Positions 10,927 to 57,400 of a stretch of 64,000 bases of DNA are shown piece after piece. How positions within the stretch are numbered: the first letter of the stretch is position 1; each line of letters begins with the position of its first letter. The notes below the pieces were generated by a model. It worked only from the letters and a program-made list of their open reading frames with translations. It was not told the DNA's origin and made no database searches. A program made the position numbers and the translations under genes. The stretch is taken from contig NW_006768844.1 of the NCBI RefSeq assembly GCF_000204055.1, positions 62,001 through 126,000 of the forward strand. Direction: 5' to 3'. This DNA comes from Melampsora larici-populina 98AG31 (Eukaryota; Basidiomycota; Pucciniomycetes; Pucciniales; Melampsoraceae).

Positions 10927-11047
10927 CTTCTCTTCTCGATGTTTGGTGCTGTGAAGAAGAAAGCAATCCAATCCAATCCAATCCAATTCACTTTCAAATC
11001 AAACAAACAGTGGTTCTTTATTTAGACTGAACTACAGTTTAATTTAA

Positions 11048-35430: not shown

Positions 35431-35672
35431 GATGTGGGGCACCCGGAGGGCGCCCTGCAAAGGCCACATGTGGCTCGGGGCGAGGGCCAGGGCGTGGCCT
35501 GCGCCCTCGCCCTTGCCATGCGCCCCTTTAGGGGGCCACGAGGCTTTGTGGCACCGGGTGTGAGCGTGACCTCCAACCTTGCCATCACCACCACCTAAGC
35601 CAACCAATGCCAAACGAGCCGCCCCTTGCTCACCAAAGCCTCGTTGACATTGAAAGAAGGCCAACCAACCTA

Positions 35673-36633
35673 CACTTCGCCAAATTTAATTTTTACCACG
35701 TGGTCTAGATAAGTAGTGAGATATGTAACCCACGTGTTAGGTATGTGTTATGTGAAGGCAATGAAGCAAAGGAATTCACTCTGTAATATGCCAAGGTGAA
35801 TAAACCAGCGCATCAATATATTTCATCTTCCTCTCGTAGTGCTGATTGGGATGATTCACGCATAGAACATCAAAGATAATTACATTATATCTGACATGTC
35901 TGCTATTGCCCTAACTAGCCTTTTCAAAGCATTTCAATTATCAATCAGTTGAGAGGTAGCCATATCTGATTTTGTGAAAGGGTTTTTTTTCATCTTTCAA
36001 TTGGATACTTTGTGATTATGATCTCGATGGGATTCTAATCATAGCCATTCTGAGTTTCCTGTGTCGCGCATACAAAAGTCCTGTACATATGTATTTACAT
36101 ATGTATCTTTCAAAAAGTCCTTATATACTTTTTTGTTTCCCCTCTCTTTCTTTGTTTGACTTCTATCGTATTGATCTCGTCGCAATCAAACCATCCAGGA
36201 ACTCTCTTGCGACCCGTTGTCTATGGCCATGGCTACATATCAACTTCGATCGTGGACTCGGACTGTTATGATCTAATGATCATGACTTGTTTATTTTACA
36301 ATCGTAGTGAGGTCCACCAAAGTATGTAATCATTAGAATCTTCCTTCGTTTTCCTTCACCTTATACGATAATTAATTGTTTCTAATGGCCCTTTCACATT
36401 TTTTTCACTGTAGCTTCAGAAAGCAACCTTTAGATCTGACCTATGACTCGTTGGATACGATCAAGCTCAAGTGTAAGTCATCTACAGTCTTACATTATTT
36501 GGTCGACACATCTGTACTCATGTCTATCCATATATAGACGGCTCGCAGGGCTTTTCATTTTTCCTTCGCTCACCTCAACCTCATCTCTAACTTCCACCAT
36601 CTGAAGCTTCCATCGATCAACCTTCCTTGAGGC
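35673..36633. repeat. Left long terminal inverted repeat of the 14.7-kb element
   Basis: Reverse-complementary to about 49420-50373. Similarity is weakest near 35760-35810 and strong from 35820 on. It contains a 60-codon frame (36089-36271) that is identical in translation in the other arm. Splice-like sites occur at 36322 (GTATGT), 36413 (CTGTAG) and 36473 (GTAAGT). Confidence 0.9.
36531..36537 (+). promoter_or_regulatory. TATA-like box in the left TIR
   Basis: TATATAG on the plus strand, about 300 bp before the ATG at 36828 and facing into the element. The mirror copy is at 49517-49522. Confidence 0.5.
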
Positions 36634-36827
36634 AACCTCCTTCTTTTTCTCTGTTAGAACTTAGCGTAGGATGTGGGTATCACATATATTAAATCTCTAT
36701 TCCTTGCCCATTTCCATCATATCTTATACCATTCCCTTTTCAATTTATTTCAATCGATCTGTACACATATCATTATGGCTGCTAATTAGAATTGGGAATT
36801 TCCTCCTTTAGTGTCTGATCAACCATC

Positions 36828-37688
36828 ATGACTAAAAGCAAGCGTAAAAATAGTGGCCAGGCTTCACCATCCACTGCGAACAGCCCTTCAAACGTGACTG
36901 ATCCGACTAAATATCAAACACCAGCGGGTCAAGCTTCCTCGGCCACCCAATCCTCCATTAAACCATTACTACCACCTGGGCCGCCTCCATTACAGCCACT
37001 ACCACCACACCCTGCAGCATTTACATCCACCCAAGACAGCGTAGTATGGTCTTTGGTCCAAACACTACCTTCAGATCTTCGGGTTTTTCTTGAACCAGAT
37101 TACGAAACCAAGCTCAAAAAGATTCTCAAAGTACAGTTTTATCGTATCTTGTTACACTTCGATCCTGCAACCAAGTCTCGTGTCACTCATCTCAAAGCCG
37201 ACCTAAATGCAGCATTCAAGAAGGACGTCCTCCCACGCATACAGCCATTTTTAACTCCACGAGCTCCAGCCCCCATGGACACGGACGATGATTCCAAAAA
37301 TGTCGACTTTAACCCTCTGGGGCGTAAAACAACCCGCAAGATGCTGATTGAGGCAATCCGACACAAAGCTCCAAATGTAATCATACCCGCAGCCGCTAGA
37401 CGTGACGGATTACTATTACTCTATCAACAGCATGTCGACAAGGGCTTAATCATCCCTGGTCAAACCCTAACCATTCGAAAACCTCATGCCATACGTCCTG
37501 ATGCGGTTGAAGGCACAGACATGGAGGATCTTCGATTGGGTCTACAGTGCCATGCTCCGCACATCTTCTTGCATTCAATTCCTATGACACATCAGGTTCT
37601 AGTTGATTGCTATATGCACTTCATTCACGAAGAACCCTTGACTTCTAGTTTGGTCGCCGGATTTCATTACTCAGTCATCTGCTTATAG
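36828..37688 (+). CDS. Element-encoded protein A (286 aa)
   Basis: First gene inside the left TIR. The N-terminus is Ser/Thr/Pro-rich (PLLPPGPPPLQPLPPHP, residues 47-63). The middle has VWSLVQTLPSDLRVFLEPDY, then LGRKTTRKMLIEAIRHKAP and RDGLLLLYQQHV, a helix pair reminiscent of SAP/HeH-type DNA-binding motifs. That comparison is by eye. The frame is intact from ATG 36828 to TAG. It is transcribed inward from the left TIR. Role unknown; a terminus-binding or accessory function is a guess. Confidence 0.55.
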   Translation: MTKSKRKNSGQASPSTANSPSNVTDPTKYQTPAGQASSATQSSIKPLLPPGPPPLQPLPPHPAAFTSTQDSVVWSLVQTLPSDLRVFLEPDYETKLKKILKVQFYRILLHFDPATKSRVTHLKADLNAAFKKDVLPRIQPFLTPRAPAPMDTDDDSKNVDFNPLGRKTTRKMLIEAIRHKAPNVIIPAAARRDGLLLLYQQHVDKGLIIPGQTLTIRKPHAIRPDAVEGTDMEDLRLGLQCHAPHIFLHSIPMTHQVLVDCYMHFIHEEPLTSSLVAGFHYSVICL

Positions 37689-38147
37689 TTTCAGGTAAGG
37701 CATCTTTTCCTTCTTCTGCTCTTGTGTTTCAAGACAGTAGCATGTTTCAGATGCTGATCAATTGATATATCCAACGTACGCCTCCAGAACAAGACTTCTG
37801 GTATTTGTAAAATCTTGATATTGTATCACATTTCATCTGCTCAAGTCACAATGATTGTATGTGAAACTTGTCGATGAGTAGGTACACAGCTTGATATCAC
37901 GTGTCTCATCTTTCAAACAAACTAACACATGTACTCTGAAACTTATGTCACTAGCTTGATTGTCTTGCTTTTCCCCTCGTGTATCTTTCATCTTATATAT
38001 GCCTGTGTGGCTGTTGTACCTTTCACTTCTATACTTTGTCCTTATCGCTATAAATTCCATAAACTCCACAAAAAAAATCAGTTTTACAATCAATCGTGTT
38101 TCTGTTTCCTCTTTGATTCTTTCATATCAACGTATCTCAACTCAACC
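37689..38147. other. Spacer and promoter region of the transposase gene
   Basis: 459 bp with pyrimidine-rich runs just before the ATG at 38148 and a CTATAAATT word near 38048. No gene. Confidence 0.4.
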
Positions 38148-41100
38148 ATGCCTTCCTCAAAGAAAACAAACGTATCCCATCGTGTTGTTTGTCAATGTAA
38201 AGCCCGAGAATGCTACCTTGGCAGCTTTATTGATGCTTACGGAGAGCGCCAATGTGGGGTTGAGGTCTTACCCTCAACTCGTGATGCTCACGTGCTTGCT
38301 GATCGACGCATGCAAGCACTTCAAGGAATCTCTGGCCAGGATTTACCGTCAACCAGCACCCGAGATCAGCCCTCTGAAGATTTGGTCACCTTTTTGGCAC
38401 GATTGCATATCCCCTCCATGGATTCACACTCCCCGTTGATGGCCTCTGAGAGAGCTTCTACTTACCAACCGATCAACACCAATCAGCGTATAACACTTCC
38501 CCGTCCAAGTCCCTTGCCCTTTGTCTCAGGTAGTGTAGAAATCAATTCACCAGCGAGAGAGCCTGAACCTACAGAATCTTCCTCCAATGAGGACTTGTCC
38601 GGTCATGCATCTGATGATCATGAGATAGCTTCATCCATTTATGATTGTGGTAAGTTGAAATTTATATTTCATCAACTTGACATCAACATTCACTCATCTA
38701 AATCGGTTTGGATTGCTTTTCAATAGATCAATTTTATATATTCAGCTTGAAAGCCATCAACCCACTTCTCCTTCATGTGGCGCTCACTAGCTCCATCCTG
38801 GTTATCTTCGATAATCTTTCTTTTAGAACAGCCTCGTGGCTTATGGATGTACAGCGTATTACTATTGAGCTGTCAATGACCTTAGGACTTCTTCCCAACC
38901 AGTCTCCTGGCGCAATCTCAGCCTCAGAGCTGAAGATTTTCAACCGAATTCCCAAGACTCTAGCTACTGCCATCGGTTGGCTCAATATCGACCCAAATCT
39001 TCTCTTTATGAACTGCTGTACATTATGCTTTGCAATGTACCCGCTTGATAATGTACCTGATGTTTGTAATCATCGAATAGCTAGTATTCCCGGGGGACCA
39101 CCAGACTCTCAAATTTCACCCAGCGATAACAAAATTGGTGTTGTAGAAGAGTTTGAACCAGATCTTTCCGAAAAAACTTGCCTTAGCCCTCTTCTGAAAG
39201 TTGTGAGAGGCAAGAAGATAGCAATCAGAAAGTATGCGGTTCAAGATTTAACTCAGTGGATCGCAAGATTCTTCTCGCGGCCTCACGTCGAAGAATGGCT
39301 CGATGAGTCGCTATGTGAATCCAGAAAACCCTACAACCAAAATGATTTAATATCTGATATTCACCAGTCAAGAATATGGAAGGAATTCAAAGGCACCGAC
39401 GGCAAGCAATTTACAGCTACAAGCGGAAACCTGGTTTTCGCAATGTTTGTGGACGCTATCAATCCGTTTGGAAACAAGACAAGCGGCCACCATGCGTCTA
39501 TCACATTCATTGTTATGGTTTGCCTTACTCTTCCAATCAGCATTCGACATCGACCAGAGAATGTATTCCTAGTGGGAATTGCTCCAGGTCCACGAGAACC
39601 ATCCTTGGAGCAGATGAACTGGATCTTACGACCAATTGTTACACAGCTCCAAAAAATCTGGAGCCCGGGGATCAAACTGTCTCGAACGCACTCTTATCCA
39701 TGTGGACGTCTGGTGAAGGCCGCATTAATCCCTTTCATAGCCGATATCCCTGCTTTAAGGCGTTCTCTTGGGTTTCCGAGTGCTTCTGCAACAAAATTTT
39801 GCTCTTATTGCCATATCACCAAGAAGGATATCAAAAATTTGGACCCGGAAACGTGGAAATGTCGTAACAAGGAGGAGCACAAGATGTGGGCATACGAAGC
39901 TCGTGACGCCCAAACCGTTGAAGAGCGTATAACCATCTTCAAGACACATGGTGTCCGTTATTCAGTGCTGGTAGAGCTTGATTATTGGGATATTGTAGAC
40001 TTTCACGTAGTGGATTCGATGCACAATTTGCTATTGGGTCTTTTATCATGGCACCTCCGACGATTCTGGTCTATGCAAGACGTCAAAAATGAAGAGCAAA
40101 TACACCAACCCATCTCAACTGCTGAACTATTACAGCTTTTAGCTGAACACTCTGATCCTCTGCCACCCAAAAACTACGTGAAGGACCCTGAAGATCTTGA
40201 GGACGACGAAGACGGCGAAGAGGATGGCCCGGAAGAGATTTCGCTCAGTGGTAACACTTCAACAGGGGATGAAGATTTCGATCCGCTTGCCGACGTTGGA
40301 TGGAAAGGCGTGTGGGAAGCTCCGCCATTGGAGGAGATCATCATCGACACATCTATGCTTGAAATAATTAATAAATTTTTACCAAGAGTCCAGATCCCAT
40401 CTTGGATTAAACGCGCTATGCCTATAGTAGGAAAAGCTTCATTTGGAAAGCTTAAAGCCGATGAGTGGAGGAACCTATTCTCAATCCAGTTGCCTCTAAT
40501 ACTGATACCATTGTGGGTCGGGAAAGACCAGACGAAACTCTCTTTGCTCAAAAACTTTTGCGACCTTGTTTCACTCGTGAACTTAGCTCTGAAACGATCA
40601 ATATCAAAAGCACAGATTGAGAGATATCGAGTTTATGTTCAAAGTTATCTTGAAGGGTCGCTAGCACTGTTTACACACTGCAGTCTTGCACCGAATCACC
40701 ATATGGCGATTCATTTAGCTGAATGTCTCGAACGGTTTGGTCCAGTAAGAGCTTGGTGGTCCTTTCCTTTTGAAAGACTCATGGGCAATATCCTCAAATC
40801 TTGTCATAATAACCACGTTGGTACGTATGTTACTTTGATCCTGAACAGTTCAAACAAGCTAACTAACTTATGTATAAAAATTCCCACAGGCGAGCTGGAA
40901 ATTACGTTCCTAAACAGCTATTGTCGAGCAGGCAATTTATCTGCCCTCATGGATGACGAAAAGCTACCGGAAGCTCTGCTGCCATACAAGTCAAGACTTC
41001 AGAAACTCTATGCTCCAGCTCCATCGAAATCTCAGCCGCTATCGAACTCCACCTGGCAAGCTCTTGACAAGCCAGTTTTGAACCTCCTTCTCAAGCATCT

Positions 41101-41620
41101 GAACAAATCGACTAAGGAGAAGTCCGTCTGGATACTTCCAGAGGAATGGTGTTTACTGTCAGAAGCAAAGTCAAAAGGTTTTGCACCACTACCAGCTAAT
41201 GCACATTTTTTCAAACACTTTGTTCACAACGACGTAATTTACTCAACATTTACACAAAGCCCAAAGAACAGTTTCATCGTCTTCAAATCTCACTTACCTG
41301 GAAATGATGAAGGCTCCGAATTTGGAAGAATCTTTTCAATTTTTACACACCGTCGGTGTCCTAATCCATCACAGAATGTTATTGATACATGGCTACACGT
41401 ACAGTGTTTTCCACACTTACCATCAAATTCTTACAATCCTTTTTCCAATCTGGATGCGCAGGATGTTCAATTCAACATCCGTGCTTGGGGGCCTACAAAG
41501 GATCAAATCATCAATATAAATGATGTGGTTGCTCATTGCTCATGGATGATGTATAGGCCTGGAGAAATTCACAAGGATTTGAGGGTCGCAACAGTGGCCT
41601 TGGTGACGATGGAAAGATGA
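38148..41620 (+). CDS. Tnp2/Plavaka-family transposase
   Basis: DDE-type enzyme that would cut the CACT termini and insert the element. Exons 38148-38649, 38727-40820 and 40890-41620 (introns 77 and 69 nt) keep one frame for about 1,108 codons. A Cys-rich N-terminus (VVCQCKARECYLGSF) precedes a Ser-rich linker. The Tnp2 core shows LVFAMFVDAINPFGNK, RPENVFLVGIAPGPREPS, RTHSYPCGRLVKAALIP, FCSYCHITKKDI, LDPETWKC and FHVVDSMHNLLLGLL. The C-terminal region shows RAWWSFPFERLMGNI and ELEITFLNSYCRAGNLSAL. These match basidiomycete Plavaka/CACTA transposases. The second intron length is a multiple of three, so it stays open if unspliced. No stop or frameshift was seen, so it is probably functional. 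Confidence 0.9.
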
Positions 41621-41706
41621 TCATTTATATAGGAGGACATCTTAGGTTTAAAATGTTGCACATCACACTGTTCTACAAGTCCTGATATAGAATGTAAATA
41701 CATTAA

Positions 41707-42779
41707 TTAAAGAGCTTTAACACTTGCAATGACACGTGGTAAGATTGGATTAGGATTAATGTCTAATGTACTGAGTTTGAGAGGTGAGAGCTTTGCGAGC
41801 CACTCTGCAGAGTAGCAGTCGACAGGAAGTCCAGGTGTTGGTTTGAGTGGACTGAGAACTGAATTATGTGAGCGGATACGAGGTCGAGGGGGTCGACCAT
41901 GCGTGTTCCTTGGAATACTTGCGGTCAATCTTGCTTTATACAGATCCAAGCAGATCATGACATCCTCCAATTGTGAGCTACGCCAAGGAAGCCTTCGGAT
42001 GCGACATGGAACCGCGGGTCGTAAGGTTTTTGTAGGTGATTCGGCCTCAGCGTCAGTCTCATCGTCACTACAACAAGCCTCAATGATATCAGAAAGACAA
42101 AATAGTGCGTCTCTCGATAAGATAATTTCTTCGCGCAAAGTTTTCAGCTATCAAAGAAAAATGATGTCGTCAGAGGTTGATTTGAAAATACAGTAAATCA
42201 TTTTCTGTAATGTCTTACATGCCGCATTCTAGCCTTTCTTCTGGTCTCGTCAGTACCTTTCCTTTTGCGCTGGTCATCCCAATCTTGTTGTCGGTACCTG
42301 TTCATCCCAAAAGGTCAGTGCTGAGATGAAAAACACAATGTTGAAGTATTGAATTGTTTTGCTTACCTTTTTGATAAAGAGCCAACATAGGTACTCAAAC
42401 ATCTCTGGATATTTGCATGATTTTCTTTTTCTGAGGAGATCCCGGTGTATTTGCCGCACTCTACTAACTTGACAAAGATTGAAAATGCCAGTTTCCATAG
42501 CCACTTGTTATCTTGTGAGTTGGGAGACTCGGAGAAATCTGGTCGAAAGGATGAAACTCCAACTGATTTCATCATTCGCCACATCACAGCCAGCTGTTGT
42601 GGAGTTGAGTTGATATGACCCGGGCCATTTGGATATGGAAAGGATGGATTGATATGGTCAGATGGTGATGGTGGACCAGAATTGTCATCGGAGTTGGAGG
42701 GTATTTCGATTCCGCACACCCAAGATGACTTCTCCTTTTCATCTGCCGGTGAAGGAAGGCGAGTATCATTGGGATCCAT
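41707..42779 (-). CDS. Plavaka accessory protein B
   Basis: Exons 42779-42367, 42297-42219 and 42147-41707 keep one frame (933 nt, 310 residues). It shows MWRMMKSVGVSSFRPDFS, FSIFVKLVECGKYTG, RYRQQDWDDQRKRKG, CCSDDETDAE, LPWRSSQLEDVM and a C-terminal PGLPVDCYSAEWLAKLS. A protein of this type often accompanies Plavaka-type transposases in basidiomycetes; its biochemical role is unknown. It is convergent with the transposase (stops 86 bp apart). The preceding minus-strand gene ends only 94 bp upstream of this ATG, so the two could be alternative parts of one transcript, though the simplest splice between them is out of frame. Confidence 0.7.
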
Positions 42780-42873
42780 TCCTAAGAGTGTGTCAATGTG
42801 AAATCGAATATGTGACTGTATTCAATAGAAATGTTAATTTCTTCTATTGATAGGTGTAACTCAATGGAAAAAT

Positions 42874-45030
42874 TCAACTTACTGCAAGTCGACCCCCACG
42901 AGTCTTTTTCTTAGACTGAACTTCGTCTTTTTTCATACTACTCACTGTTTTCGATAAATGTCTAAAGTCGTTGGTCAAACTATCGACCTTGTCCGTTAAT
43001 TGACGTGTTTCGTCCTGAAGGTGTTTGATTAATTTTGAATCTTTCGCAACTTTCTGGCGTAGATCTGAGATAGTCCAGGCGTCTATTGAAGGCAGTTGAG
43101 GGGAAACTGAACGGGAGGGAGGTTTGTTCGACGAGCCATAAGGATTTGCGGAATGTGTTTGTGTTTTTTGAGTCTTTGATTTTTTCTTGGAAGCTCGGAC
43201 AGATTCGTCAGCTTCAGGCTCCCAATCACTGTCCGAGAGGATTCTCTGTGGCGGAGGTGATGGGCGTATAGTGGGTGGTGGGCGCGCATGTGTAAATCGT
43301 CGGTGTTCTAAGCTTGGATAGGAAGGATTTGATTTAGTGTGTGTTGATGTAGAGGGGTTGTCAGATTCTGGATGTGATTCTTGAGGTAAGCTTGATGGAC
43401 CAGGACTTCCCGAACTAGCGGGAGCACAATTTTCTCCTTTCTGGGTGGCTTGTAGTGACGCTCGAGTACGTGTTAACCTACTGTGTTTGGTCAAGCCTGG
43501 CATCAGGGTAAAAAAACAGTAATGAGCCCTTTTTTGATTTCGGACGCAGAGCCCAAACAAAACAAGACTTACTTGGTGTTGGGCTATCAGTGTCGAAACC
43601 TACATTCACATCCCTTTCAACTTCCTTCCCTTTGAGTGATTCTGTATGAGCCGAAGAGTTATCCAGCGGTTTAATAGCATGATCATCTTGAACCGCATGT
43701 AAAGCTTTACCCGGCTCTGAAGAATGCTTGGACGTGGAAGCGTTTGACGATAGTTTCAACTTAGAACCTTGTGAGGACACTTGGATCGACGGAGTGTGAG
43801 TTGAAGTACTCACAGATTCAATAGCATTAGTCGACTTCCTAGAAGTCCTACGTCTTTCGATTTGAGTTGTATTCGGAACCATGTTTTCTTGCGCCACCGC
43901 TCCAACACCTTTCCATATTATCACATATAGTCAAAGATTGTGTTAATCAAGAGAAAGCAAGTTTTGAGAAATCAAAAATCTTACCAGATGTACAGCCTTC
44001 CGCGCTTTCTAGGGCTGCTTCACTGCCTTGAATGCTAGTCTTTCTTCCTCGAGTTTTTGGGGTTTTAAACACTTTTGACCTATTATGTTTCTTTTGAACC
44101 TTTTGAATCTCGGGCAAGACGGTGGCTTCTTCACTTCGTCGCAGATTTGTGTGAGAGATTTCTGGAACTCCTAAGTTCTCGATCGAGCTCTGAACTACCT
44201 GAGTTGTAGTTCTGTCGCTTATAGATGGGGGATACTGAACCAAAGCGTGGGCCGCGCCTAAAGGGACTTGCAACGTAAATTCCGAAGTGGTCATATCCAG
44301 ATGGTTATTTTGGGTGACATTCCTCCCAAAATGATCTGGAATGATGACTAATCCACATTCAAAGTGATCAACATGAAAGCTCACTCAATCAATAGGGAAT
44401 AAGTTGATACTAACTGAGCTCCTGATAACTCGTGCACTGTTCAAGAAGGGCTGTCCTTTCCAGCATACGACCATCCACTCCAACCATTTGCAGGAGTTCC
44501 TCAAGTTGTGAATTCTCGAAGACAGAAAAGTTGACATTTGGTTCGGAAGAAGGTCCGATGTTTAATTCAAGAGTCCTTTCCACATTGGTTTGTTTGGGAG
44601 TAGCTTTGACGATAGGTCCAGGAGTAGCTTGCATTGGAACCGCGGATGTGCTGGAAACAACGGAATGATCGTGCTGGCCCCTGCCGCGAGGCGCCTGCGA
44701 GCTACGTATTCTCCCTGCTGGATGGCTTTGATCTAATCGTGACTTTTTCCGTATGACGTGTTGGTCGAGCAGATCCAAAAGACGATTCCGAGTTGTTTTG
44801 GGTCCAACTCTAACCCCCACTTCGGTCAAGGACTGTTCTGCACTAGCCTCGGTCAACGGGACCTGCCCTTCTTTGGGTAAGATAGGTGGACAAGGTTGTA
44901 ATCATCAGGTCACCCAAAAGATTTCAGATATATATATGATGAAGAAAAAAAGGAAAAACCGACCATTGTTATTATGAGATTCCGAACCTGCAGTATTTCT
45001 CCTTCGCTTTGTTTTCCCGGGTACGTTCAT
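42874..45030 (-). CDS. Element-encoded protein C, Ser-rich with a coiled coil (614 aa)
   Basis: Five exons, 45030-44964, 44870-44415, 44347-43985, 43908-43573 and 43496-42874, splice with consistent phases into 615 codons. The N-terminus is basic (VPGKTKRRRNTAG). Long Ser/Thr/Pro-rich, low-complexity stretches follow. The C-terminus has a coiled coil (ISDLRQKVAKDSKLIKHLQD...TDKVDSLTNDFRHLSKTV) and a basic tail SKKKTRGG. No catalytic domain was recognised. Suggested as a structural or DNA-bridging component. The frame is intact, which suggests selection or recent arrival. Confidence 0.65.
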
Positions 45031-45824
45031 TTGAAAACTTTTGTGAATTTGATTGTAGATAAATTTGAAGAATGAATGTGCGTGTAGAGACTGAAGGAGA
45101 GCGCAGTCGAATTGAGCTCAGAAAGAACGATATGAAACAGGACCAGCCTAAGATTTCAAAAGATGTCTTCGAAAATTTACATGAAATTTGAGGAATAGGG
45201 AAAATAAAAAATGCACAAGAGCGTGAGATGTTTAAAATTCATCAGATCCTCAAAAGAACTTTGAACGGTGGGAACAACATGACTTTGTAAGAGGCAAGTA
45301 GCAGACATGACAACATCTGACTCATCAAACACTGAGCTCGGTTAATGAGCCATTGTTCTTGTTGGTTGTACACTATTTTCATGCCTAACAGATATACAAA
45401 ACAGGGGCAACAAATGGCTTTACATTCACACCACCACTCCTTTCTTTACCACGTAGCCAGTAACCATTAATGCTGGTAGTCTAATAAAGTAAAGTCACCG
45501 GACAAGTCTAAGATCCACAAGTAATGATACGTAATGACGGAAAAGGGAACTCAGTAAAGCCCAACCATTCTTACTACCGGGAGTATAATAAAGTAAAGTC
45601 ACAGAACAAGTTCAAAATCCACAAGTAATGATAGGTAATGATGGAAAAGGGGATTCAGAAATGAAGTTGTTGTTGAATGACAAATACGTTGAAGTTGACC
45701 CATTCCTTCAGCTTGTAATTAGACACAGCTGAACACTGAAGTACACAAATTTGGTTTTCTATACTCAGTATAGGAAAGTGCAGCCATATTTTGATAGATC
45801 AGCACAGTGCAATCACGGTCGCGA
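45031..45824. other. Spacer with a two-copy direct repeat
   Basis: 45474-45553 and 45588-45660 are imperfect direct repeats (AATAAAGTAAAGTCAC, CCACAAGTAATGATA, AATGA.GGAAAAGGG), about 113 bp apart. No gene. Confidence 0.6.
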
Positions 45825-45993
45825 TCATGTGCATTCAGAGAATTCACCAAACCTTTCAAAGCTCACCTCCTTGTAAATTTGCTCCCAGCGACCACCTGAT
45901 GCGCTCTGAAGATACGTGACAGAAATGTCAGAATATAGATAATCTGGATGTTTGAAGTTAAAACTATCAAGATCACACAAACTTACCACTTGT

Positions 45994-46407
45994 CTACGCG
46001 GTGGCACCCGCGCCGTTGTTACCATCATTGTTAGCCTCGCCAGCGTCCGGATCCGGTCCAAGCTCGATAAGAAAGGGGACGTCAAAGATGTATAAGATAC
46101 CACGTTCTTCATCGAAGACTTTAGGTGAGCGAAGGATGGGAACAATATAGTATATGAACGACTCGATAAGATTACTCTTGGTGAGCATGCGGACGTGAGG
46201 GATTGTGTGATAGAAACACTTCAAACTATCGCGGAGGTTTTCTGTCGTGGTAGTTCGGTGATGAAGCACACTCAAATCCAGAGTAACCAGATGTCGGAGA
46301 TGAACAGGTATATCATAAATATGTATTGGCGGCGGGAGGTCTGCTATACTAGTGTGTGCATGAACTAATGGAGGCTGGTTGTTCTGCCCTTGTGGATTTG
46401 GGAACAT
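45994..46407 (-). CDS. Element-encoded protein D (137 aa, unknown)
   Basis: Intact single-exon frame with hydrophobic and leucine-rich helices (HLRHLVTLDLSVLHHR, ESFIYYIVPILRSPKVF, ILYIFDVPFLIEL) and an acidic, Gly/Asn-rich tail. There is no signal peptide. A donor-like GTAAGT near 45985 means it may continue into 45825-45980. No family recognised. Confidence 0.45.
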   Translation of the reverse strand: MFPNPQGQNNQPPLVHAHTSIADLPPPIHIYDIPVHLRHLVTLDLSVLHHRTTTTENLRDSLKCFYHTIPHVRMLTKSNLIESFIYYIVPILRSPKVFDEERGILYIFDVPFLIELGPDPDAGEANNDGNNGAGATA

Positions 46408-46549
46408 GATATATAATACGAGAAAAGTTTGAGTAAGTGAAATTTATGAATTCTAGAATAATTGTAATTGTGAAGTTTGAGATTTGATTTTTAATAGTTA
46501 AATATGATTGTGGGACGGCAGACGGAAGGTAGAAATGCCAAAATTTCAC

Positions 46550-47766
46550 TTCTTATAAGGTAAATTCTTCGTCTGTTGCCGGCAGAAGCTCGGCATCAAA
46601 GCTGTCGTTGAAAAACTAATGACCCAAAATATGCACAAGTCATCAGTCCATGAAGAAACGTGGTGTAAATCCCTCAGAAATCTCATTCATAAAACGTTAT
46701 GAATGTTCGAAGAGGAAAGAAGGGAACACCTTGTTTTTTATCCACAGAAACGTACTGATTTTGTAGTCCTTGGATATGACAATCAGTTGATCAATTGATT
46801 GTCTCAAGCTCTACTTTAATCCTGAGCTGACCGATCACTCATTGCCCCACTCTTAGATATATTATCAAGCTCATGCTGTTTTGAATGATGTCGGTTTGAT
46901 TTTTTTCACCTAACTGCACTCGCATGTTCTCTATCCTTATCTTCATTTGTCAACAATAGATTTCTCAGAGGGTTATACATAAGATAATAAGATAATGATA
47001 TCAGCGGTTCGATTTCGGCTTCATTGAGTGGCGTCCGTATGTTCATGATATAAAAAGCAGATCGAATTTTGAAGTTATCAGTCTCATTAGGCGTGTTGTT
47101 GAGTTTGGTTATAATATCATGAAGATACGCTCTATCACCATATACCTAAACCCCCACTTGTCAATTTATATAATCGCAAGTAAGAGGCAGCCCCATGGAA
47201 ATGGATATTCGCAAATTTATGTAGCTCGTTTCTTCTTCATCTTCAGTATGTATGTGCATCTCATGAGAAATAATTCTCTTACAAAATCGGCATCACCCCA
47301 CACTCAAAGATCGAAGATCAAATTTCTTTTTGATTTACAGTAGATAAGATGGTATTCAAAATTGAATGCAGTTATCTAAACTATATGGCTTAAAATTGTA
47401 CTAAGATAAGGATAACCAATTATAAAGTCAAAAAAGTTTTCTACAATATGTAGATACAAACATATCTCAGAAACCTGTACACGCTGATGGATCTACTTCT
47501 TGAAACAGTCCAAGTGAGTGGCTTTGGGAATGGCCAGGAGAGTGATACAAAGGAAATAGACCCGCCTCATGATTTGATTGTTCTCAGCAAGCTGGGATTG
47601 ATGATAGAACTTACAAAAAGAAATAATGATATCTAATCATTCGTACATAATCATAGAGGAAACAAATTCTAGTGTTCAAGGATGAGCACTGTGACGCAAC
47701 GACTCTTTTTTTTGTGGAAAGATGATTAAACCAGCTACGCCTATAATTCTAAACTTGTTTGAATAA
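46550..47766. other. Non-coding interior of the 14.7-kb element
   Basis: AT-rich; only a 74-codon plus-strand frame (47119-47343) without motifs. Nothing supported. Confidence 0.4.
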
Positions 47767-49367
47767 TTAAATATGAGAGATCATACTACTCGAGCTTTCA
47801 ACAGACCTGCTCTCATCAGATTCCTGCATATTAATCAAGCTTGCGATGACCTCTTCGTGCGCCTGGATGTCTTCGACTGCTGCAGCCAAATTTTTGCAAA
47901 GGCGGGACACCTCACCTTTTAAGTCGGTCAGAGTAGCATGCAGTGTTCCCATGTGATCAACTTTTTGCTTGAGATCTGCAACAGACACTTGTAGCTGGCG
48001 AACTTCATTATAACACAATGATGAGAACAGGACACTGAATGATTTACTTAGACAAACTCACATACCTTCTTTGTCTCGCCTCATCTCATCTGCCAAAACA
48101 GTCAAATCAGACTTCTCGTTCATCTCCATTTTCAATCTGAGATTTTCCACTGATTCCTCGAGCTGCTGAACTAATTAGACAGGAACATCAACTCAAATTG
48201 AACTCACAGAAAGCAGAAGCGGACTGACTTTGCTTCACTCGATTTCTTTCTTCTTGAAAAACTTCAACACCAGACTTTTTGCTGGCAGTTCTAGCAGAAG
48301 CGGATTCGAGTGGAATGGGTGGAATATCTTGTCCAATCACTTTGAAGGTATGAAGGAAAGTGGATTCAGTTTTGGAAAAGCTGTAGCTCATGTGAGTCAC
48401 CAACCTGGATTGGGGGTGTCCATCCAATTTGTTTCTGACAAGTCAATGAGAGGCGGAATGCATGTATTGGAATTGTCCAAGGCCTGAGGTCCAACGGGGT
48501 TTGAGGTAGGTTTGGATGGGGTGAGTTGATTGTGACTTGCTCCATCAAGCATGCTAGTTTGTAACTTCCTCGATTTTGGACGCTAGGAAATAAAAATGCA
48601 CAATGGGATGAATGTGAGAGACTGCGCACATTTCACATTATACATACGAGAATTAGTAGATCAAACTCACCCATTTTCTTTCTTTCTTCAGAGCAACTGG
48701 CGGTTCCGGTATGGTTGGCATCAAACGACCTAGATAGATAGGCAGCATCCAATATGATTTGGTAAGTCGATTCACTCTTGTCATGTACAAGGTAGAAAGA
48801 AATATAAACTCAGAATAGTTACCTGGTTCTGAGCGCTTGAAAAGGCGATCATGATCGAGTTCATTGGACCCAACTTGTTTCCTTTGGCCAATTAACGTCG
48901 ATTTGGTCTCCAAGAGGACTGGTGCAACAGACGTGACATTTAACATCTTCTCAGCCTGAGAGAAGGTGACGTGTTAGTCTGTGATCAAGATTGAGGCTAA
49001 GTATGAGTATAGTGGATGACTTACAGGTGAAGCTGAAGCAGAGTCGTGATCCAATGATCCGGTCGAGCTGGCAGAAAGGCTAGAATTGGAGGTGTCAGCC
49101 GTTTGATCAACAGCCGGGGCATCGCTGTCAGGATTCGAGAAATCTTTTCATCGAAAGATACATTATCAAAATCAGATCAGCTCAATCTGACAATAACTGA
49201 ATCTTTTTGAAAACATGCACAGGCTGACGTTCGGGTTGCATCTGGCGGACTATCTTAGAGACTTCGTTTTTGGTGATTCCAGACTTAAGCGGGGTTTGAG
49301 GGTGATTGATGCGCATCCAATCAAGCATGGTTTGCTTGCTCATACCGCGACTGCTGGGGTCAAGCAT
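47767..49367 (-). CDS. Element-encoded coiled-coil protein E (multi-exon)
   Basis: First gene inside the right TIR, transcribed inward. Exon 1 begins at ATG 49367 (LDPSSRGMSKQTMLDWMRIN), a short helical module. Further blocks are at 49140-49030 (Ser/Asp-rich), 48955-48830 (LETKSTLIGQRKQVG), 48590-48410, 48400-48240 and 48180-48070 (QLEESVENLRLKMEMNEK). The last is 48018-47767 (ADLKQKVDHMGTLHATLTDL), ending at a stop. The C-terminal third is a long coiled coil. Exact splice borders are uncertain, and one or two junctions need atypical sites. Like protein C it pairs a disordered region with a coiled coil; the two may be paralogous partners. Confidence 0.5.
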
Positions 49368-49419
49368 AATTTCAGTCTAGAATGGATGATGTTAATTGAT
49401 CTTGAAACGGAAATGATGA

Positions 49420-50373
49420 TTTAAGGAAACTTGATCGATGGAAGCTGGAGATAGTGGAAGTTAGAGATGAGGTTGAGGTGAGTGAAGAAAGAATCGAAAA
49501 GCCCTGCGAGGCAATCTATATATGCATAGACATGAGTGAAAATATGTCGACCAAATAATTTAAGATTGTAGATGACTTACACTTGAGCTTGGTCGTATCC
49601 AACGAGTCATAGGTATATAGGGTACTTTCTCAATCTACAGTGTAAAAAATATGAAAGGGCCATCATAGATAATTAATCGTATAAGGTGAAGGAAAACGAA
49701 GGAAGATTCTAAACGATTACATACCTTGTTGGACCTCACTACAATTTTAAAATAAACAAGTCATGATCATTAGATCATAACAGTCCGAGTCCACGATCGA
49801 AGTTGATATGTAGCCATGGCCATAGACAACGGGTCGCAAGAGAGTTCCTGGATGGTTTGATTGCGACGAGATCAATACGATAGAAGTCAAACAAAGAAAG
49901 AGAGGGGAAACAAAAAAGTATATAAGGACTTTTTGAAAGATACATATGTAAATACATATGTACAGGACTTTTGTATGCGCGACACAGGAAACTCAGAATG
50001 GCTATGATTAGAATCCCATCGAGATCATAATCACAAAGTATCCAATTGAAAGATGAAAAAAAACCCTTTCACAAAATCAGATATGGCTACCTCTCAACTG
50101 ATTGATAATTGAAATGCTTTGAAAAGGCTAGTTAGGGCAATAGCAGACATGTCAGATATAATGTAATTATCTTTGATGTTCTATGCGTGAATCATCCCAA
50201 TCAGCACTACGAGAGGAAGATGAAATATATTGATGCGCTGGTTTGTTCAGCTTGGTAGAATACACAGTGTGTTCATTTGTTTCATTGCCTTCACATAACA
50301 CATACCTAATATGCGGGTTACATATCTCACTACTTATCTGGACCACGTGGTAAAAATTAAATTTGGCGAAGTG
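49420..50373. repeat. Right long terminal inverted repeat of the 14.7-kb element
   Basis: Reverse complement of 35673-36633. The 60-codon frame 49957-49775 (minus) gives the same translation as 36089-36271. The outer 100 bp are more diverged than the middle. Confidence 0.9.
49517..49522 (-). promoter_or_regulatory. TATA-like box in the right TIR
   Basis: TATATA facing into the element on the minus strand, about 150 bp before the ATG at 49367. Mirror of 36531-36537. Confidence 0.45.
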
Positions 50374-50923
50374 CTAGCAGTACTGATGGGTTAATGATTC
50401 TTGCAACAGTCAGCAAGGAAAAATTAACTGCTAAGGAGTCTGAACGTAAGGAGGCTGTTAAGGCTTGGGAAGAAAGTCAAGCTAAATTAGATAAGATGTA
50501 TATTGATAGAGAGATTCAACTCGAGAAGTTGCGAAATGAAAGAAAGGCGGATGCAGAGGCTAATGCACTCAAGCGCCTTCGCCTCAATGAAAGGCGCATT
50601 CAGGCAAAGGTGCAGAAGTATCCCAATCAAGCTAAGGCAATGGAGACCTTCCGAGCAGAAGTAAAAGATAATATCTCGGAAGAAGCCAAAAAAATCAAAG
50701 CAGCGATTTGTATAAACATTGAGGAAAAGGTGTTTTTCTTCAATCAACTACCTGATGATATGAAATGGGGTTGGCTCAAGAGTGAAATCACCACCAATTA
50801 ACTTTATCAATTTGTACCTAGATTATTTTATGCTCTAGTATAATCAATATCAAAGTATCAATCATCTCCACAGAAATAAAAAACATTTCACTTTGTGAAT
50901 TTGTATCTAAAATACTATTTGAC

Positions 50924-53114
50924 CTATTTGAATACAAATAAAACTATATTTGATCTCCATTGTCTTCTAGGATGAGCCATATAATCATCAAACATTTCCT
51001 GTGCCATAGCATCCCAAGCAGCATGTGCCTCATTTTGAATTCCAAGATTGGGTTCTTCATAATGATTGTTTGCTCTAGCTTGTGCCCATTCTAAATTTTG
51101 AGTATTCTCCTCCTCCCTTTGAAGCCTGTCAAACTCATCATGAAAAGAGTCTTCAGGTCCAGCATCCCGTATGATATTGTGTAGAACACAGCATGCCACC
51201 ACAAGTGAGTATTGAACTTCTAGATCATATCTAGGCATGTATTTCATTACTTGAGATCTCATCTTCATAACACCAAAGATGCGCTCAATGACATTTTGTG
51301 CCATGGCATGTCGTAAATTGTAAAGTTCTTGAGGAGTACGTGGAGCACGGTTTCCAATGTGCCATTCTTGAAGATGATATCAAGTTCCAGAGTATGGGAT
51401 CCATACATCTGGGCAATGAGGATAGCACAAATGCCCTAAATAGTATCTTCCTAGAAACCAGATTGCATCAGATCATGGAATTTGAAGGTAACAATCAAAA
51501 TACTCACCTTCAGGTACAATGAAGGCACCATTCTCACGTGCTCTAGTGAGCACATAGGAGTCGTGCACCCTATCACCTATTCCAGCATAGACAAAGAGGA
51601 ACTTCATGTTAAATGAACAAGCTGCTAAAACGTTTTGTGATAATGTAAAATGTCAATTGCGATGTTTAGATCTGTCAGAAAATTTGACTTGAGCTTCAAT
51701 GTGAGTACTGTTGAGATGCAATCAAGACTGTCACAATGAACTGACATGTCTGTATTGTGATATCTCAAACAGGTGTTAGCTGTGGTGATATGTGTGTTCT
51801 AGTTATGTTTCTTTTGTTTTGTGATCAGTCACTTTGAAAGTGGTTTTCTTAATCTTGTTCCCAATACCTTTGCCGCACATCATCCCCATTGTGTTTTCAA
51901 TTTGAGTTGTTGGGCCAATGTTATATGTTGTGAATCGGTTTTGTGTTCCCACTCTCTTTCCCATCTTTATGGAAAGAGAGTAAGTCTTTTCTTAAAATCC
52001 TCAAATTCATTATCAACACTAATGTAGGGATGTGTTACAGAACTTCCGTTTAGATCGTATCATTAGCTTTATCAAAAGCTTCTTTATTATTGTTTCTCAT
52101 CTTTATCTTTACCTCCCACTATTTCAGGTACAAGATTTACTTTTGTCATTTCGCTTTATCACTTTCTCTAAAAACTCATCTCATCTTTCTTTCTCTATTA
52201 TTTTTCTACTTAGGTTAGTCAAAGGTCTGCATACCTTAGACATGGAGAGAAGAGTGCTTATGTTAGCATTGGTTTTAACAGGTTAGCTTTGAAATACATT
52301 AGATCTTTATGGAAAGAGAAACTTGCGTTTAGATCGTATCATTAGCTTTATTAAAAGCTTCGTTATTATCGTTTCTCATCTTTATCTTTACCTCCCACTA
52401 TTTCAGGTTAGTCGAAGGTCTGCATACCTTAGATGTGGAGAGAAGTGTGCTTATATTAGCACTGGTTTTAACAGGTCTTCTTAGAAATTTACAAGTACCA
52501 TCAAGAGCTCCAATGCAATTCCGGAACCACAGATAGAATTTTGAATTGTCAACTATCTTGTTGGGGATGGGAGCATCAAGTCCTGGTTGAATAATTATAG
52601 AATCAACAAGTCCCTCAAGAGCATTTCGAACAATATGAAAGTATCAATGGACTGTTTTGGTCGAGTGTTGGAATCGTTTGGCAGTGTGTCTCATTTCTAC
52701 TGAATGACCAGTGATGAATAAAAATATCATTACTTATTCATCGATTGTTATGTGCTCTGAAGGTTCCAATAGTGGCTTGGAATAGGTCATGAGATGCTTG
52801 AAGGCGTGCTTTTCAAGCTTCAGGACTTCCAGAAACCGGACATTCCTCCCTTCAAGGAGTTCTCTCTTGTAAGCATAGCCTTGCAAAGCTGAAGTCCGGC
52901 AAGGTATTTTTGCATAGCGTTGCTTGCGTTTCTCATGTTCCATTTCTTCAATTACAGCAGCAGCTGTTGCAATGAGGATGTCCTCATCGTCTGAAGATGA
53001 TAACTCGGATGAGGTACTGTCGTCCATGGGATCATCAATCAAGTCTTCAATGGATGATGAGTAATCATCTGATAAATTGCTGAACGTTGATTCCAAGTCA
53101 CCCAAATCCGACAT
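50924..53114 (-). pseudogene. Harbinger II transposase, broken
   Basis: The acidic N-terminus starts at 53114 (SDLGDLESTFSNLSDDYSS) and runs to SEHITIDE before a TAA (52736-52734). The same frame goes on with MIFLFITGHSVEMRHTAKRF and, after a TGA, YFHIVRNALEG and FYLWFRNCIGALDGT (first Asp). After about 800 bp of unrelated sequence come LAACSFNMKFLFVYAGIGDR and VHDSYVLTRARENG. An intron follows, then YYLGHLCYPHCPDVWIPYSG, a TGA, YHLQEW and NVIERIFGVMKMRSQ. The ADAGY motif holding the third Asp is scrambled. Inactive copy. Confidence 0.85.
51650..52478. repeat. Insertion with duplicated segments inside transposase II
   Basis: 52041-52127 and 52320-52406 are near-identical (TTAGATCGTATCATTAGCTT), as are 52213-52282 and 52406-52475 (GGTCTGCATACCTTAGA). 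The segment separates the GALDGT and VLAACSFN parts of the transposase. Its origin is unknown; ends and TSD were not identified. Confidence 0.6.
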
Positions 53115-54498: not shown

Positions 54499-57400
54499 TC
54501 AAAGTTGATGATAAGATCCAGGTCTTAATAATTGAATACCTGATTCATCATCACCATCATCATTACCACCTTCATTTTTCTTTTGACCACTAAGAATCCC
54601 AATCCCATCTTGATGTGAATTAGAATGTAAACCTAGATGATGATGATGAATCTTATCATTTCTTTTAATCTTCATACAACACCTTCTCCAAACCAAAAAA
54701 CAAGCCGCAAGGATTCCAACTCCACAAGCCCAAACCTCTGAACGAAGAAAATCTCGAATCTTAAACCTTAGAGGAATCAAATCAGGTGGAGCAAAAGCCA
54801 GTAAAGCAAAATGACCACCAACGACTGGTCTAACTAAGAATCCAATTGACCAACCCCCTTCGATGGTAATCAAATCACCAAACACGTTATTGTTAGTTTG
54901 TTTTAAATATCGGACCACTGAATCTAATAAACGTTTTCGGGTCTCTTGTAATGTTGAAGCTGCTGAGGTCCATATCAACCAATCTGTTTTGGCTCGATCT
55001 GGTGCTCTTGAATCTAATGGTGGTCCGTAGGTTGATTGATTTCCTATAAAGAGACACGTATAACCAAGATACATTAGAGTGAATAGAAATAAGAAAATAT
55101 AATTGAATTGACGTACCTGCTTTAAGGAGGTACCAACGATCTTGCATATCATAAACCCAATCAGGGAATAGATCCAACTGGTACAATTTATCGAGGTACA
55201 AATTATACTGTTGAAAAAAACGTATAGAAACGATAATTAGAAGATGTTGAATACGAAAAGATACAACTTCAAAGCCTTACTTGAGTACTCCATGAGGATT
55301 GATTATTATAAGATCCTAAAAGATTTGTACGATCTTTTGAAACTGAAATTTCTAAAAACGCTTTAACATACTTAATAGCCACATCCTATTTCCCGTACAA
55401 AAAGATATTCATATTAATAATTTAAAGACCAAAATGAAAAGAACTGATGGTATAATTGTACGTACCTTATAATAAATAAAATCTTGCTTGTGACCTAGGG
55501 TTGATGAAATCTCTGACATTGCACGAAGTCCTATGATTCCTTTGACTGCGAGACTAGTTTGGTTTGGTGAAGGACCGAAGACTATTGAGTACTTGAGTCA
55601 GTAATAGGTTTGTTTATCTTTTTGGATCATTATCTTGACTTACAATCATCAGTCGAACCTATAGGAATGGAATGAGCCCTTAGTTCCTTGGAAAAACAAA
55701 CATCAAAAAGAAGTTTTTGAAATAGAACTCACGTTGATCATCAGGATACAAAGCATTTTCAACTAACCAATCCGCCCATCTCTTTAATAAATAATAATAA
55801 TCTTGAACTTGATCTATACAACTTTCTTTTCTTAAACAACCAAGAGCTAAAGATAAGAAATTACCCGATTCTTCCATTGGTAAAGTAGCCCTAACAAAAT
55901 CATTCCGACCTGTTGCATTTGGATAATGATCACCTAGATCATGTGGAACTGGAATCGGGTTATACAATCCAGTGGAAATATATCGATAGATCGGTTCAAG
56001 TAAAAGGGTTAAAAGTTGAGGTGATGCATAAATTAAAAATGGTAACATTGGGGCTATCACATCGGTTGTTTGACAATTTCCATTCGATGAGATTTCTTTT
56101 AACATGGCCATAGTTCTATATCCATTGATCATTGTATCTGTTCCAGTTCGATTCATCGATTCATCTTGATCCCATACGATTTCTAATGCCATGAAGATCT
56201 GACGTGTCGAAATCTTAAGCATATCTGCATAATCTTGACTTTCGATTCTTGTAGCATCTTGATCAAGTTGTGTATCCCAAGCTTCAGAAAGTGTACGTGA
56301 TTGATGATAATCTTTTATATGAAAGTTGACTAAATCGATTGGTGAATTGAACCGTGTCTTCCATAAAGGTTGCAGTCCAATAATCTTATCTCCTTTTGTC
56401 ATATATTGTACTAACGGTTCACGAACATGACCAATTGAGTAAATCACAGTCCGATCCTCAATCGAAGTTTGTGCTTTGATCTTTCCAAGGTTATGAGCAA
56501 ATGCAAAAGTAGGTTCATCTTGAGTTCCATTTTGATGTTGACTACGAATGGCTCGATAGGTTTGATTCAAGGTATTCTCAAGTTCACCAGTGTTTGAAAA
56601 GATTTCTCTAGTAAGATCTCGATCTAATCCTAAAGATCTTGTGATCTTTGAACCTTGAGGTCCAAGAGTACTATACCAAACTGAACCATGAAGTATCCTA
56701 TCATCCGACTCCACATACTCTCTTTGATCACGTAAATAGACTTCAATGGTTTGTTGAGTTAACTTGGAATGATCTTTCCATTCAATCACTTCTGATTCTG
56801 AATCGGTACACCAAAGCCCATTGAAATCAGTATAAAGTTCAACTTGATGTGGTAATCCATCTAATGATTTAACACTGATGGTAAGATAAGATAATGGTAA
56901 TGATTGGCGGAATAAATCATTTGGTGTGATGGGTGAAAGAAATGAAACTTGAAGTTCAATGGTCGAATTAGCTACTTGATAAGTAAAATTCGAACTTGAA
57001 GCAGTAAGTAAGAATTCAGTATTATTGGCTGCCTGCCCTATTTGATTGCATCCCCCGCCGCAAAAAACAGAAAATAACGCGTCATTATTTAGAAATCTTT
57101 AGTGATGAGGTTAATGAGGAAAAAAGAAACTCAAACAGTTTGTAAGATTTCCCATCCAATTCGATACTACACCGTCTACTCTTATAAGTCCTGTCCAACC
57201 AATATGACTGCCCGTCCAAAACTTTGGACTCATCTCACTCAAATCTTTATCTGTATACTACACTGCCTCCCCATGCTAAATAATGTTCCACAGATATGGT
57301 GATCTGACTGATAATGGAACAACCTATTCAATCCAATCAAAATCAAATCAACATAATGGTAAACAATCAATAAGAAATCAATAGACGTTGTGGTAAACTG

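What the first reader, a model, noticed from the sequence alone, without database searches (positions are those of the whole stretch)
35673..50373. A complete-looking 14.7-kb Plavaka/CACTA-like transposon with a multigene cargo
CACTTCGCC termini, a 3-bp CTA duplication and a full-length Tnp2/Plavaka transposase define the element. It also carries five other genes arranged in two inward-facing sets. CACTA termini are usually tens of bases; these inverted repeats are about 950 bp. Two of the cargo proteins combine disordered regions with coiled coils, and one has a helix pair like DNA-binding SAP/HeH motifs. A multi-protein transposition machinery is therefore possible. Seen: ends, TSD, frames. 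Known: Tnp2/Plavaka family motifs. Inferred: cooperation of the products.
Basis: partly seen in the sequence, partly recalled or inferred. Interest (0 to 1): 0.9.

Follow-up and report, generated by a model that had tools for sequence, protein, structure and literature searches.

The report
Multi-gene CACTA transposon of poplar rust
This 14.7-kilobase jumping-DNA element of the poplar rust fungus Melampsora larici-populina carries a DNA-cutting enzyme gene plus four other genes; relatives of three of those four lie beside most of the related enzyme genes examined in the genome, so they are likely parts of the jumping machinery rather than passengers.

Summary
Confirmed and extended. The element at 35673-50373 is a CACTA/EnSpm-type DNA transposon: CACTTCGCC tips, CTA target duplication, 956-bp inverted arms, and an uninterrupted 1108-aa Tnp2-type transposase. 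The genome is Melampsora larici-populina 98AG31. A tip-motif search found 50 ends (backwards control 0), forming 15 facing pairs; 14 of 15 have perfect 3-bp duplications, including 9 of 9 pairs not used to design the motif. Each of the 12 pairs over 13 kb contains relatives of accessory genes g1, g3 and g5; a transposase was found in 11 of 12. Of 47 scored transposases (of 454 candidates), 46 have g1, 44 g3 and 34 g5 within 25 kb (1.4-2.1 expected). These are family genes, not cargo; g4 marks a six-copy subfamily. There are four accessory genes, not five; the Plavaka label is not supported. Long arms occur in 3 of 8 elements read. In the window a 497-bp identical tract lies between diverged flanks (0 of 20,000 shuffles), a signature of gene conversion between arms. 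The arms end about 200 and 55 bp before the start codons of the two outermost, inward-facing genes, so they likely act as twin promoters. DNA binding by accessory proteins is predicted only.

The parts
35670..35672 (.). left target-site duplication CTA
35673..36628 (+). left terminal inverted repeat (956 bp), starts CACTTCGCC
35802..36298 (+). 497-bp stretch of the left arm identical to the right arm (likely conversion tract)
   Evidence: longest identical run, 0 of 20,000 shuffles reach it (longest shuffled run 196)
36828..37688 (+). g1, 286 aa, single exon, predicted helix pairs; accessory gene found across the family
38148..41620 (+). Tnp2-type transposase, 1108 aa, exons 38148-38649, 38727-40820, 40890-41620
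41707..45030 (-). g3, 930 aa, 8 exons; low-confidence (likely disordered) N-terminal half, long helix (predicted coiled coil) and helical C-terminal domain in a modelled relative; accessory gene found across the family
45467..45661 (+). two direct copies of a 91-bp repeat (84% alike) between the g3 and g4 models
45994..46407 (-). g4, 137 aa, single exon; found in six places of the genome (subfamily gene)
47767..49367 (-). g5, 359 aa, 8 exons; N-terminal segment conserved across the family, coiled-coil-like C-terminal part; accessory gene found across the family
49423..50373 (-). right terminal inverted repeat (951 bp), ends GGCGAAGTG
49748..50244 (-). partner of the 497-bp identical stretch in the right arm
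   Evidence: gap-free pairing of the outer 662 bp
50374..50376 (.). right target-site duplication CTA

Best explanation
This is a CACTA/EnSpm-type DNA transposon whose Tnp2-type transposase gene is accompanied by three accessory genes found across the family (g1, g3, g5) and one subfamily gene (g4), and these proteins likely act together to move it by cut and paste. Shown: the ends, the 3-bp duplications, the recurring gene set, nonsynonymous change far below synonymous change in the transposase, g1, g3 and g4, and an identical tract shared by the two arms. Inferred: the DDE transposase cuts at the CAC/GTG tips, while g1, g3 and g5 bind the subterminal DNA and hold the two ends together, as TnpA does for maize En/Spm but split over several genes. 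Inferred: the long arms give the two outermost inward-facing genes the same promoter, and gene conversion between the arms keeps them alike. Relatives with the same kind of ends but no match to the genes (982 bp, 3.2 kb and 6.9 kb) would be moved in trans.
For: Tip motif: 50 matches, 0 in the backwards control, 15 facing pairs. 14 of 15 pairs have a perfect 3-bp duplication, 9 of 9 among pairs not known when the motif was written. Each of the 12 pairs over 13 kb contains g1, g3 and g5 matches, the 3 short pairs none; a transposase is present in 11 of the 12. Of 47 scored transposases, g1 is within 25 kb of 46, g3 of 44, g5 of 34, against 2.08, 2.06 and 1.44 expected under uniform placement. 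Against the C54 copy dN/dS is 0.10 for the transposase, 0.12 g1, 0.17 and 0.31 for two g3 exons, 0.24 g4 (synonymous sites near saturation). Uninterrupted models for the five genes. Relatives of g5 and g3 run across five of seven g5 junctions and three of seven g3 junctions. The 497-bp identical run in the arms was not reached in 20,000 shuffles. C9 has 971-bp arms at 100%; C54 has an outer 104 bp at 88% but an inner 440 bp at 99%. In elements with short tips, left and right subterminal DNA are unlike each other, while like sides of two elements match over up to 1 kb at 66-76% (C4/C12, C47/C117), so in the window, C54 and C9 one side seems to have replaced the other.
Against: No tool showed DNA binding. 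Pfam searches of g1, g3, g4 and g5 or their relatives gave no match above a cut-off, and profile comparison of g1, g3 and g5 with each other was not significant. C4 has AAA/ATA instead of a duplication. Long arms were seen in 3 of 8 elements. Gene order is not fixed: g1, transposase, g3, (g4), (g5) in 27 of 47, permuted or incomplete in the other 20. g5 was not seen near 13 of 47 transposases. 10 of 89 g1, 17 of 88 g3 and 7 of 61 g5 matches have no family neighbour within 25 kb among the rows used. 20 of the 50 tip matches found no partner.
Confidence: 0.72

Rival explanations
1. The extra genes are selfish passengers or host-silencing antagonists that ride in the element and are not needed for cutting and joining.
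For: No biochemical evidence places them in the transposition reaction; other rust transposon families carry TET/JBP dioxygenases thought to counter silencing (PMC12730594, abstract, listed passages and sections 15 and 34 read).
Against: They recur near 46, 44 and 34 of 47 scored transposases and in each of the 12 paired long elements, closer than optional passengers need be. None shows a Pfam enzyme match above cut-off. The two weak TET/JBP matches in the genome lie outside the 15 paired elements, but that search was insensitive.
Confidence: 0.2
2. Only the transposase and short tips make the transposon; the long identical arms are an assembly artefact, reads of one arm having been used for both.
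For: The identical run (497 bp) is shorter than a typical Sanger read (recalled), and a gap of 100 N lies at the right tip of the C54 copy.
Against: The arms differ at 14 columns outside and 46 inside the identical run, so both were resolved there. Two other elements have long arms of other sequence (C9, C54).
Confidence: 0.08
3. The gene set is a resident host cluster into which a Tnp2 element inserted.
For: Some g1, g3 and g5 matches lie without a family neighbour (10 of 89, 17 of 88, 7 of 61).
Against: Between 61 and 89 matches for each gene in the genome, and enclosure by facing tips in 12 of 12 long pairs, 11 of them with 3-bp duplications.
Confidence: 0.01

Closest known systems
EnSpm/CACTA families of rust fungi (Kojima 2025, PMC12730594)
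   Same: CAC..GTG tips, 3-bp duplications, EnSpm-type transposase with some likeness to Plavaka, Pucciniales host
   Different: The families described there with TET/JBP genes; none found in this element. The text I read does not describe a conserved accessory gene set or long arms; its supplementary sequence files were not open to me.
Plant CACTA elements En/Spm, Tam1, Tgmt* (PMC2613891, passages read)
   Same: Tnp2-type transposase; large size (8.3, 17 and 20.5 kb there); a second product, TnpA, is required in En/Spm and binds subterminal repeats; 3-bp duplication (recalled)
   Different: There the second product comes from alternative splicing of one unit. Here there are separate accessory genes in two inward-facing sets, without Pfam match; arms up to 971 bp against 13-bp inverted repeats.
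Maize MuDR (Mutator; PMC3440606, passages read)
   Same: Convergent genes; promoters lie in the ~215-bp terminal inverted repeats of MuDR, and the arms here cover the upstream regions of the outermost inward-facing genes
   Different: Different superfamily and transposase. Promoter activity of the arms is not shown here; two genes in MuDR, five here.
Plavaka (PlavakaA and PlavakaB of PMC12730594)
   Same: Fungal transposons of the wider CACTA clade
   Different: Tips TGT..ACA or CATCA..TGATG and 2 or 2-3 bp duplications; the Pfam Plavaka profile does not match this transposase.
CNIRT6 of Cryptococcus neoformans (PMC12810828, passages read)
   Same: Mobile fungal element classed as CACTA, CACTG tips
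   Different: The passages describe a transposase gene; I saw no accessory gene set mentioned.

Membership tests
CACTA/EnSpm | CAC...GTG tips | tested here: met
CACTA/EnSpm | 3-bp target-site duplication | tested here: met
   window CTA; 14 of 15 facing pairs
CACTA/EnSpm | Tnp2-type transposase (PF02992) | tested here: met
   47.9 bits against cut-off 28.6
CACTA/EnSpm | DDE residues with C(2)C and H(3-4)H between second D and E | tested here: inconclusive
   Candidate residues seen by eye only (VDAINPFGN, ADIPA, CSYC, HHMAIH, GELE) in the protein; no reference alignment made. Motif as described in PMC12730594.
CACTA/EnSpm | second product binding subterminal repeats (TnpA-like) | not testable with these tools
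   g1, g3 and g5 are candidates; no binding data
Plavaka | match to Pfam Plavaka (PF18759) | tested here: not met
   24 matches in the genome, none in the element; not listed up to E 10 for the whole transposase
Plavaka | tips TGT..ACA or CATCA..TGATG | tested here: not met
   tips are CACTTCGCC; definition
TET-positive rust EnSpm | TET/JBP dioxygenase gene inside the element | tested here: inconclusive
   no Tet_JBP match in Pfam scans of the element's frames; genome search gave two weak matches below cut-off outside the 15 paired elements, although PMC12730594 reports TET/JBP transposons in this species, so the profile is insensitive here
SAP/HeH DNA-binding domain in g1, g3, g5 | profile or fold match to SAP/HeH | tested here: inconclusive
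   helix pairs in models of g1 and of a g3 relative; SAP E 0.04 in 1 of 19 g3 relatives; FANC_SAP E 0.16 in 1 of 4 g5 relatives scanned; fold searches under Tried and rejected
MuDR-like promoter-in-TIR organisation | terminal repeats hold promoters of the inward-facing outer genes | not testable with these tools
   arms end about 200 and 55 bp before the start codons of g1 and g5 in the window; no expression data

The most novel reading that the evidence does not exclude
Rust CACTA elements are multi-subunit transposition machines: a Tnp2 transposase works only with three dedicated partner proteins that match no Pfam family, and the element keeps its two inward gene sets under one duplicated promoter by converting one terminal arm to the other.
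Probability: 0.4. Interest if true: 0.78.

Novelty: new variant of a known kind. Interest (0 to 1): 0.56.

Why it matters
The CACTA elements whose protein needs are worked out are plant ones, where one transcription unit yields both transposase and DNA-binding partner (En/Spm; PMC2613891, passages). A fungal branch with more than 40 transposase loci beside a conserved set of separate genes gives a natural way to ask which proteins a CACTA reaction needs, and gives a context to three gene families that sit in rust annotations as uncharacterized or hypothetical proteins. The identical tract between otherwise diverged arms is a trace of how transposon ends may be kept matched.
Full report
What is there. 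The window lies in a 98.3-Mb, 243-contig genome. Annotated proteins of Melampsora larici-populina 98AG31 sit on contigs of exactly the lengths of C54, C47, C9 and C80 (659473, 809085, 1918270 and 345040; lengths; proteins), so the source is the poplar leaf rust. At 35673-50373 lies a 14,701-bp unit with CACTTCGCC tips, CTA on both sides, and arms of 956 and 951 bp that are 93.7% identical. Inside are five genes in two inward-facing sets. On +: g1 (36828-37688, 286 aa) and a Tnp2 transposase (38148-41620, 3 exons, 1108 aa, PF02992 E 1.2e-12). On -: g3 (45030-41707, 8 exons, 930 aa), g4 (46407-45994, 137 aa) and g5 (49367-47767, 8 exons, 359 aa). The introns of the models are GT-AG and no frame is interrupted. 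I count four accessory genes, not five.

Is it one transposon? I searched the genome for the tip motif CACTWCNCNAANNNNNNTWTTTNCC, written from the ends seen so far: 50 matches, none for the backwards control. Thirty of the 50 form 15 facing pairs, from 982 bp to 21.1 kb; 20 have no partner. I had or fetched the flanks of the 15 pairs: 14 have identical 3-bp flanks (CTA, TTA, TAA, TAT, TGT, TAT, TCA, AGA, AAA, TAT, TGA, TCA, TAT, ATA), one does not (C4, AAA/ATA). Six of the pairs (window, C83, C47, C117, C4, C12) were known beforehand; of the nine others, nine have the duplication, where chance gives about one in 64 each. Each of the 12 pairs longer than 13 kb encloses matches to g1, g3 and g5. 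A transposase is inside 9 of them, in C47 by tblastn and in C13 by a second search, so 11 of 12; in C41:553677 none was among the scored ones. The three short pairs (982, 3161 and 6850 bp) hold no match to the genes and look like non-autonomous relatives.

Are the extra genes core? One search scored 47 of 454 transposase candidates. Within 25 kb of these 47, g1 is found at 46, g3 at 44, the g5 N-terminus at 34 and g4 at 5. Uniform placement would give 2.08, 2.06, 1.44 and 0.14. For g5 I used the 61 of 87 rows that match its N-terminus. The order g1+ Tnp+ g3- (g4-) (g5-) holds in 27 of 47. Others are permuted, for example Tnp g3 g1 g5; some rows may mix neighbouring elements, since the nearest gene was taken. 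Conversely, 79 of 89 g1, 71 of 88 g3 and 54 of 61 g5 matches have another family gene within 25 kb among the rows used; the other transposase candidates were not in that count. g4 was matched only in C80, C54, C47, C117, C83 and C14, between g3 and g5 in the five where g5 was seen. Against the C54 copy, nonsynonymous change is far below synonymous change in the transposase (dN/dS 0.10; 0.06-0.10 against the five copies compared), g1 (0.12), g3 exons 6 and 8 (0.17 and 0.31) and g4 (0.24). Synonymous sites are near saturation, so the ratios are rough; g5 was not tested.

What are the proteins? g1, g3, g4 and g5, or their relatives, match no Pfam family above a cut-off, which shows no cut-offs, gave a best E of 0.0069 among 19 g3 relatives. 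Named database relatives are uncharacterized or hypothetical proteins of Melampsora, with one g3 relative in Puccinia striiformis (E 4.5e-15, 34% identity over 54% of the region searched); others come from unnamed short contigs. Some of these short contigs (1.7-3.0 kb) encode relatives of the 8-exon genes g5 and g3 whose frames run across five of seven g5 junctions and three of seven g3 junctions; the rest lie in loosely aligned stretches, and the first g5 junction had to be corrected from them. One g3 relative (774 aa on a 2746-bp contig) leaves little room for introns, which suggests a spliced transcript; I did not see the DNA. AlphaFold2 gives g1 several helix pairs (mean pLDDT 72). It gives a g3 relative a confident helical segment near residues 118-162, a long single helix and a helical C-terminal domain (mean pLDDT 64). 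By eye the pairs look like SAP/HeH motifs; DNA binding is a prediction.

The arms. In the window the two arms differ at 60 of 959 columns, but not evenly: 14 differences in the outer 129 bp, none in the next 497 bp (35802-36298 against 49748-50244), 46 in the rest. None of 20,000 shuffles of the differences gave a run above 196. C9 has 971-bp arms at 100%. C54 has an outer 104 bp at 88%, then unequal spacers of about 1.07 and 0.34 kb, then 440 bp at 99% and 72 bp at 100% (its right tip runs into 100 N). The other five elements whose ends were read keep 84-141 bp at 80-100% (C83, C47, C117, C4, C12), with one weaker 70-bp stretch in C47. In these five, left and right subterminal DNA are otherwise unlike, whereas like sides of two elements can match over long stretches: C4 and C12 g5 sides 73% over 1026 columns, C47 and C117 g1 sides 76% over 808, their g5 sides 66% over 446. 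So in the window, C54 and C9 one subterminal side seems to have replaced the other. Gene conversion between the arms is the simplest reading; the window tract, bounded on both sides by differences, is its clearest trace. In the window the arms stop about 200 bp before the g1 start codon and 55 bp before that of g5; in C54 the distances are about 274 and 130 bp, and about 232 bp for g5 in C9 (coordinates; the C9 g1 start was not located). The arms thus span the upstream regions of the two outermost inward-facing genes, as the promoter-bearing ends of maize MuDR do (PMC3440606, passages). Promoter activity is not shown.

Comparison. Tips, 3-bp duplication and transposase place it in CACTA/EnSpm. 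The Pfam Plavaka profile matches 24 other places in the genome and not this one, and Plavaka tips differ. Kojima (PMC12730594; abstract, listed passages and sections 15 and 34 read) reports rust EnSpm families with CAC..GTG tips and 3-bp duplications, some with TET/JBP genes; no TET/JBP match lies in the 15 paired elements, but that search was insensitive. [quoted passage not shown] PMC12810828 (passages) describes a mobile CACTA element of Cryptococcus. In maize En/Spm both TnpA and TnpD are needed, made by splicing of one unit (PMC2613891, passages). The rust element differs in having separate accessory genes and, in some copies, arms near 1 kb.

Judgement. The unit is a real, structurally complete transposon. 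Its 'cargo' is the recurring gene complement of a large rust CACTA branch. How the proteins cooperate is inferred. Novelty: a new variant of a known kind.

Noticed in passing
window 50924-51379 and 50361-50801: Right flank holds a weak DDE_Tnp_4 (Harbinger-like) frame just below cut-off and a frame that looks coiled-coil-rich by eye; the element may sit in or next to an older transposon.
   Followed up: partly
window 54499-57098 (-): Glutaminase-A-like gene pieces (DUF5127 and GtaA_6_Hairpin) about 4 kb beyond the right end.
   Followed up: no
window 22624-24174 (+): Frame with an rva_4 integrase core, likely another mobile element.
   Followed up: no
window 8145-10998 (-): Protein kinase domain frame at 9940-10998 (Pkinase 8.3e-53), next to a 619-aa frame at 8145-10004 without Pfam match.
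   Followed up: no
G000 C9:379792-379891 and 395575-395675: A second inverted repeat (about 101 bp, 90%, starting AGYGGTGTACAAACC, flanked by AAC on both sides) encloses the C9 copy: the CACTA element seems nested in another transposon.
   Followed up: partly
G000 C63:416624-417605, C28:845705-848865, C12:478414-485263: Short relatives with the same kind of tips and 3-bp duplications but no match to the genes: candidate non-autonomous elements.
   Followed up: partly
G000 C77:234328/C8:343435 and C26:338981/C4:365371: Some g3 matches have identical scores at two places: very recent copies or uncollapsed haplotypes.
   Followed up: no
window 45467-45661: Two 91-bp direct copies, 84% alike, 104 bp apart, between the g3 and g4 models.
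   Followed up: no
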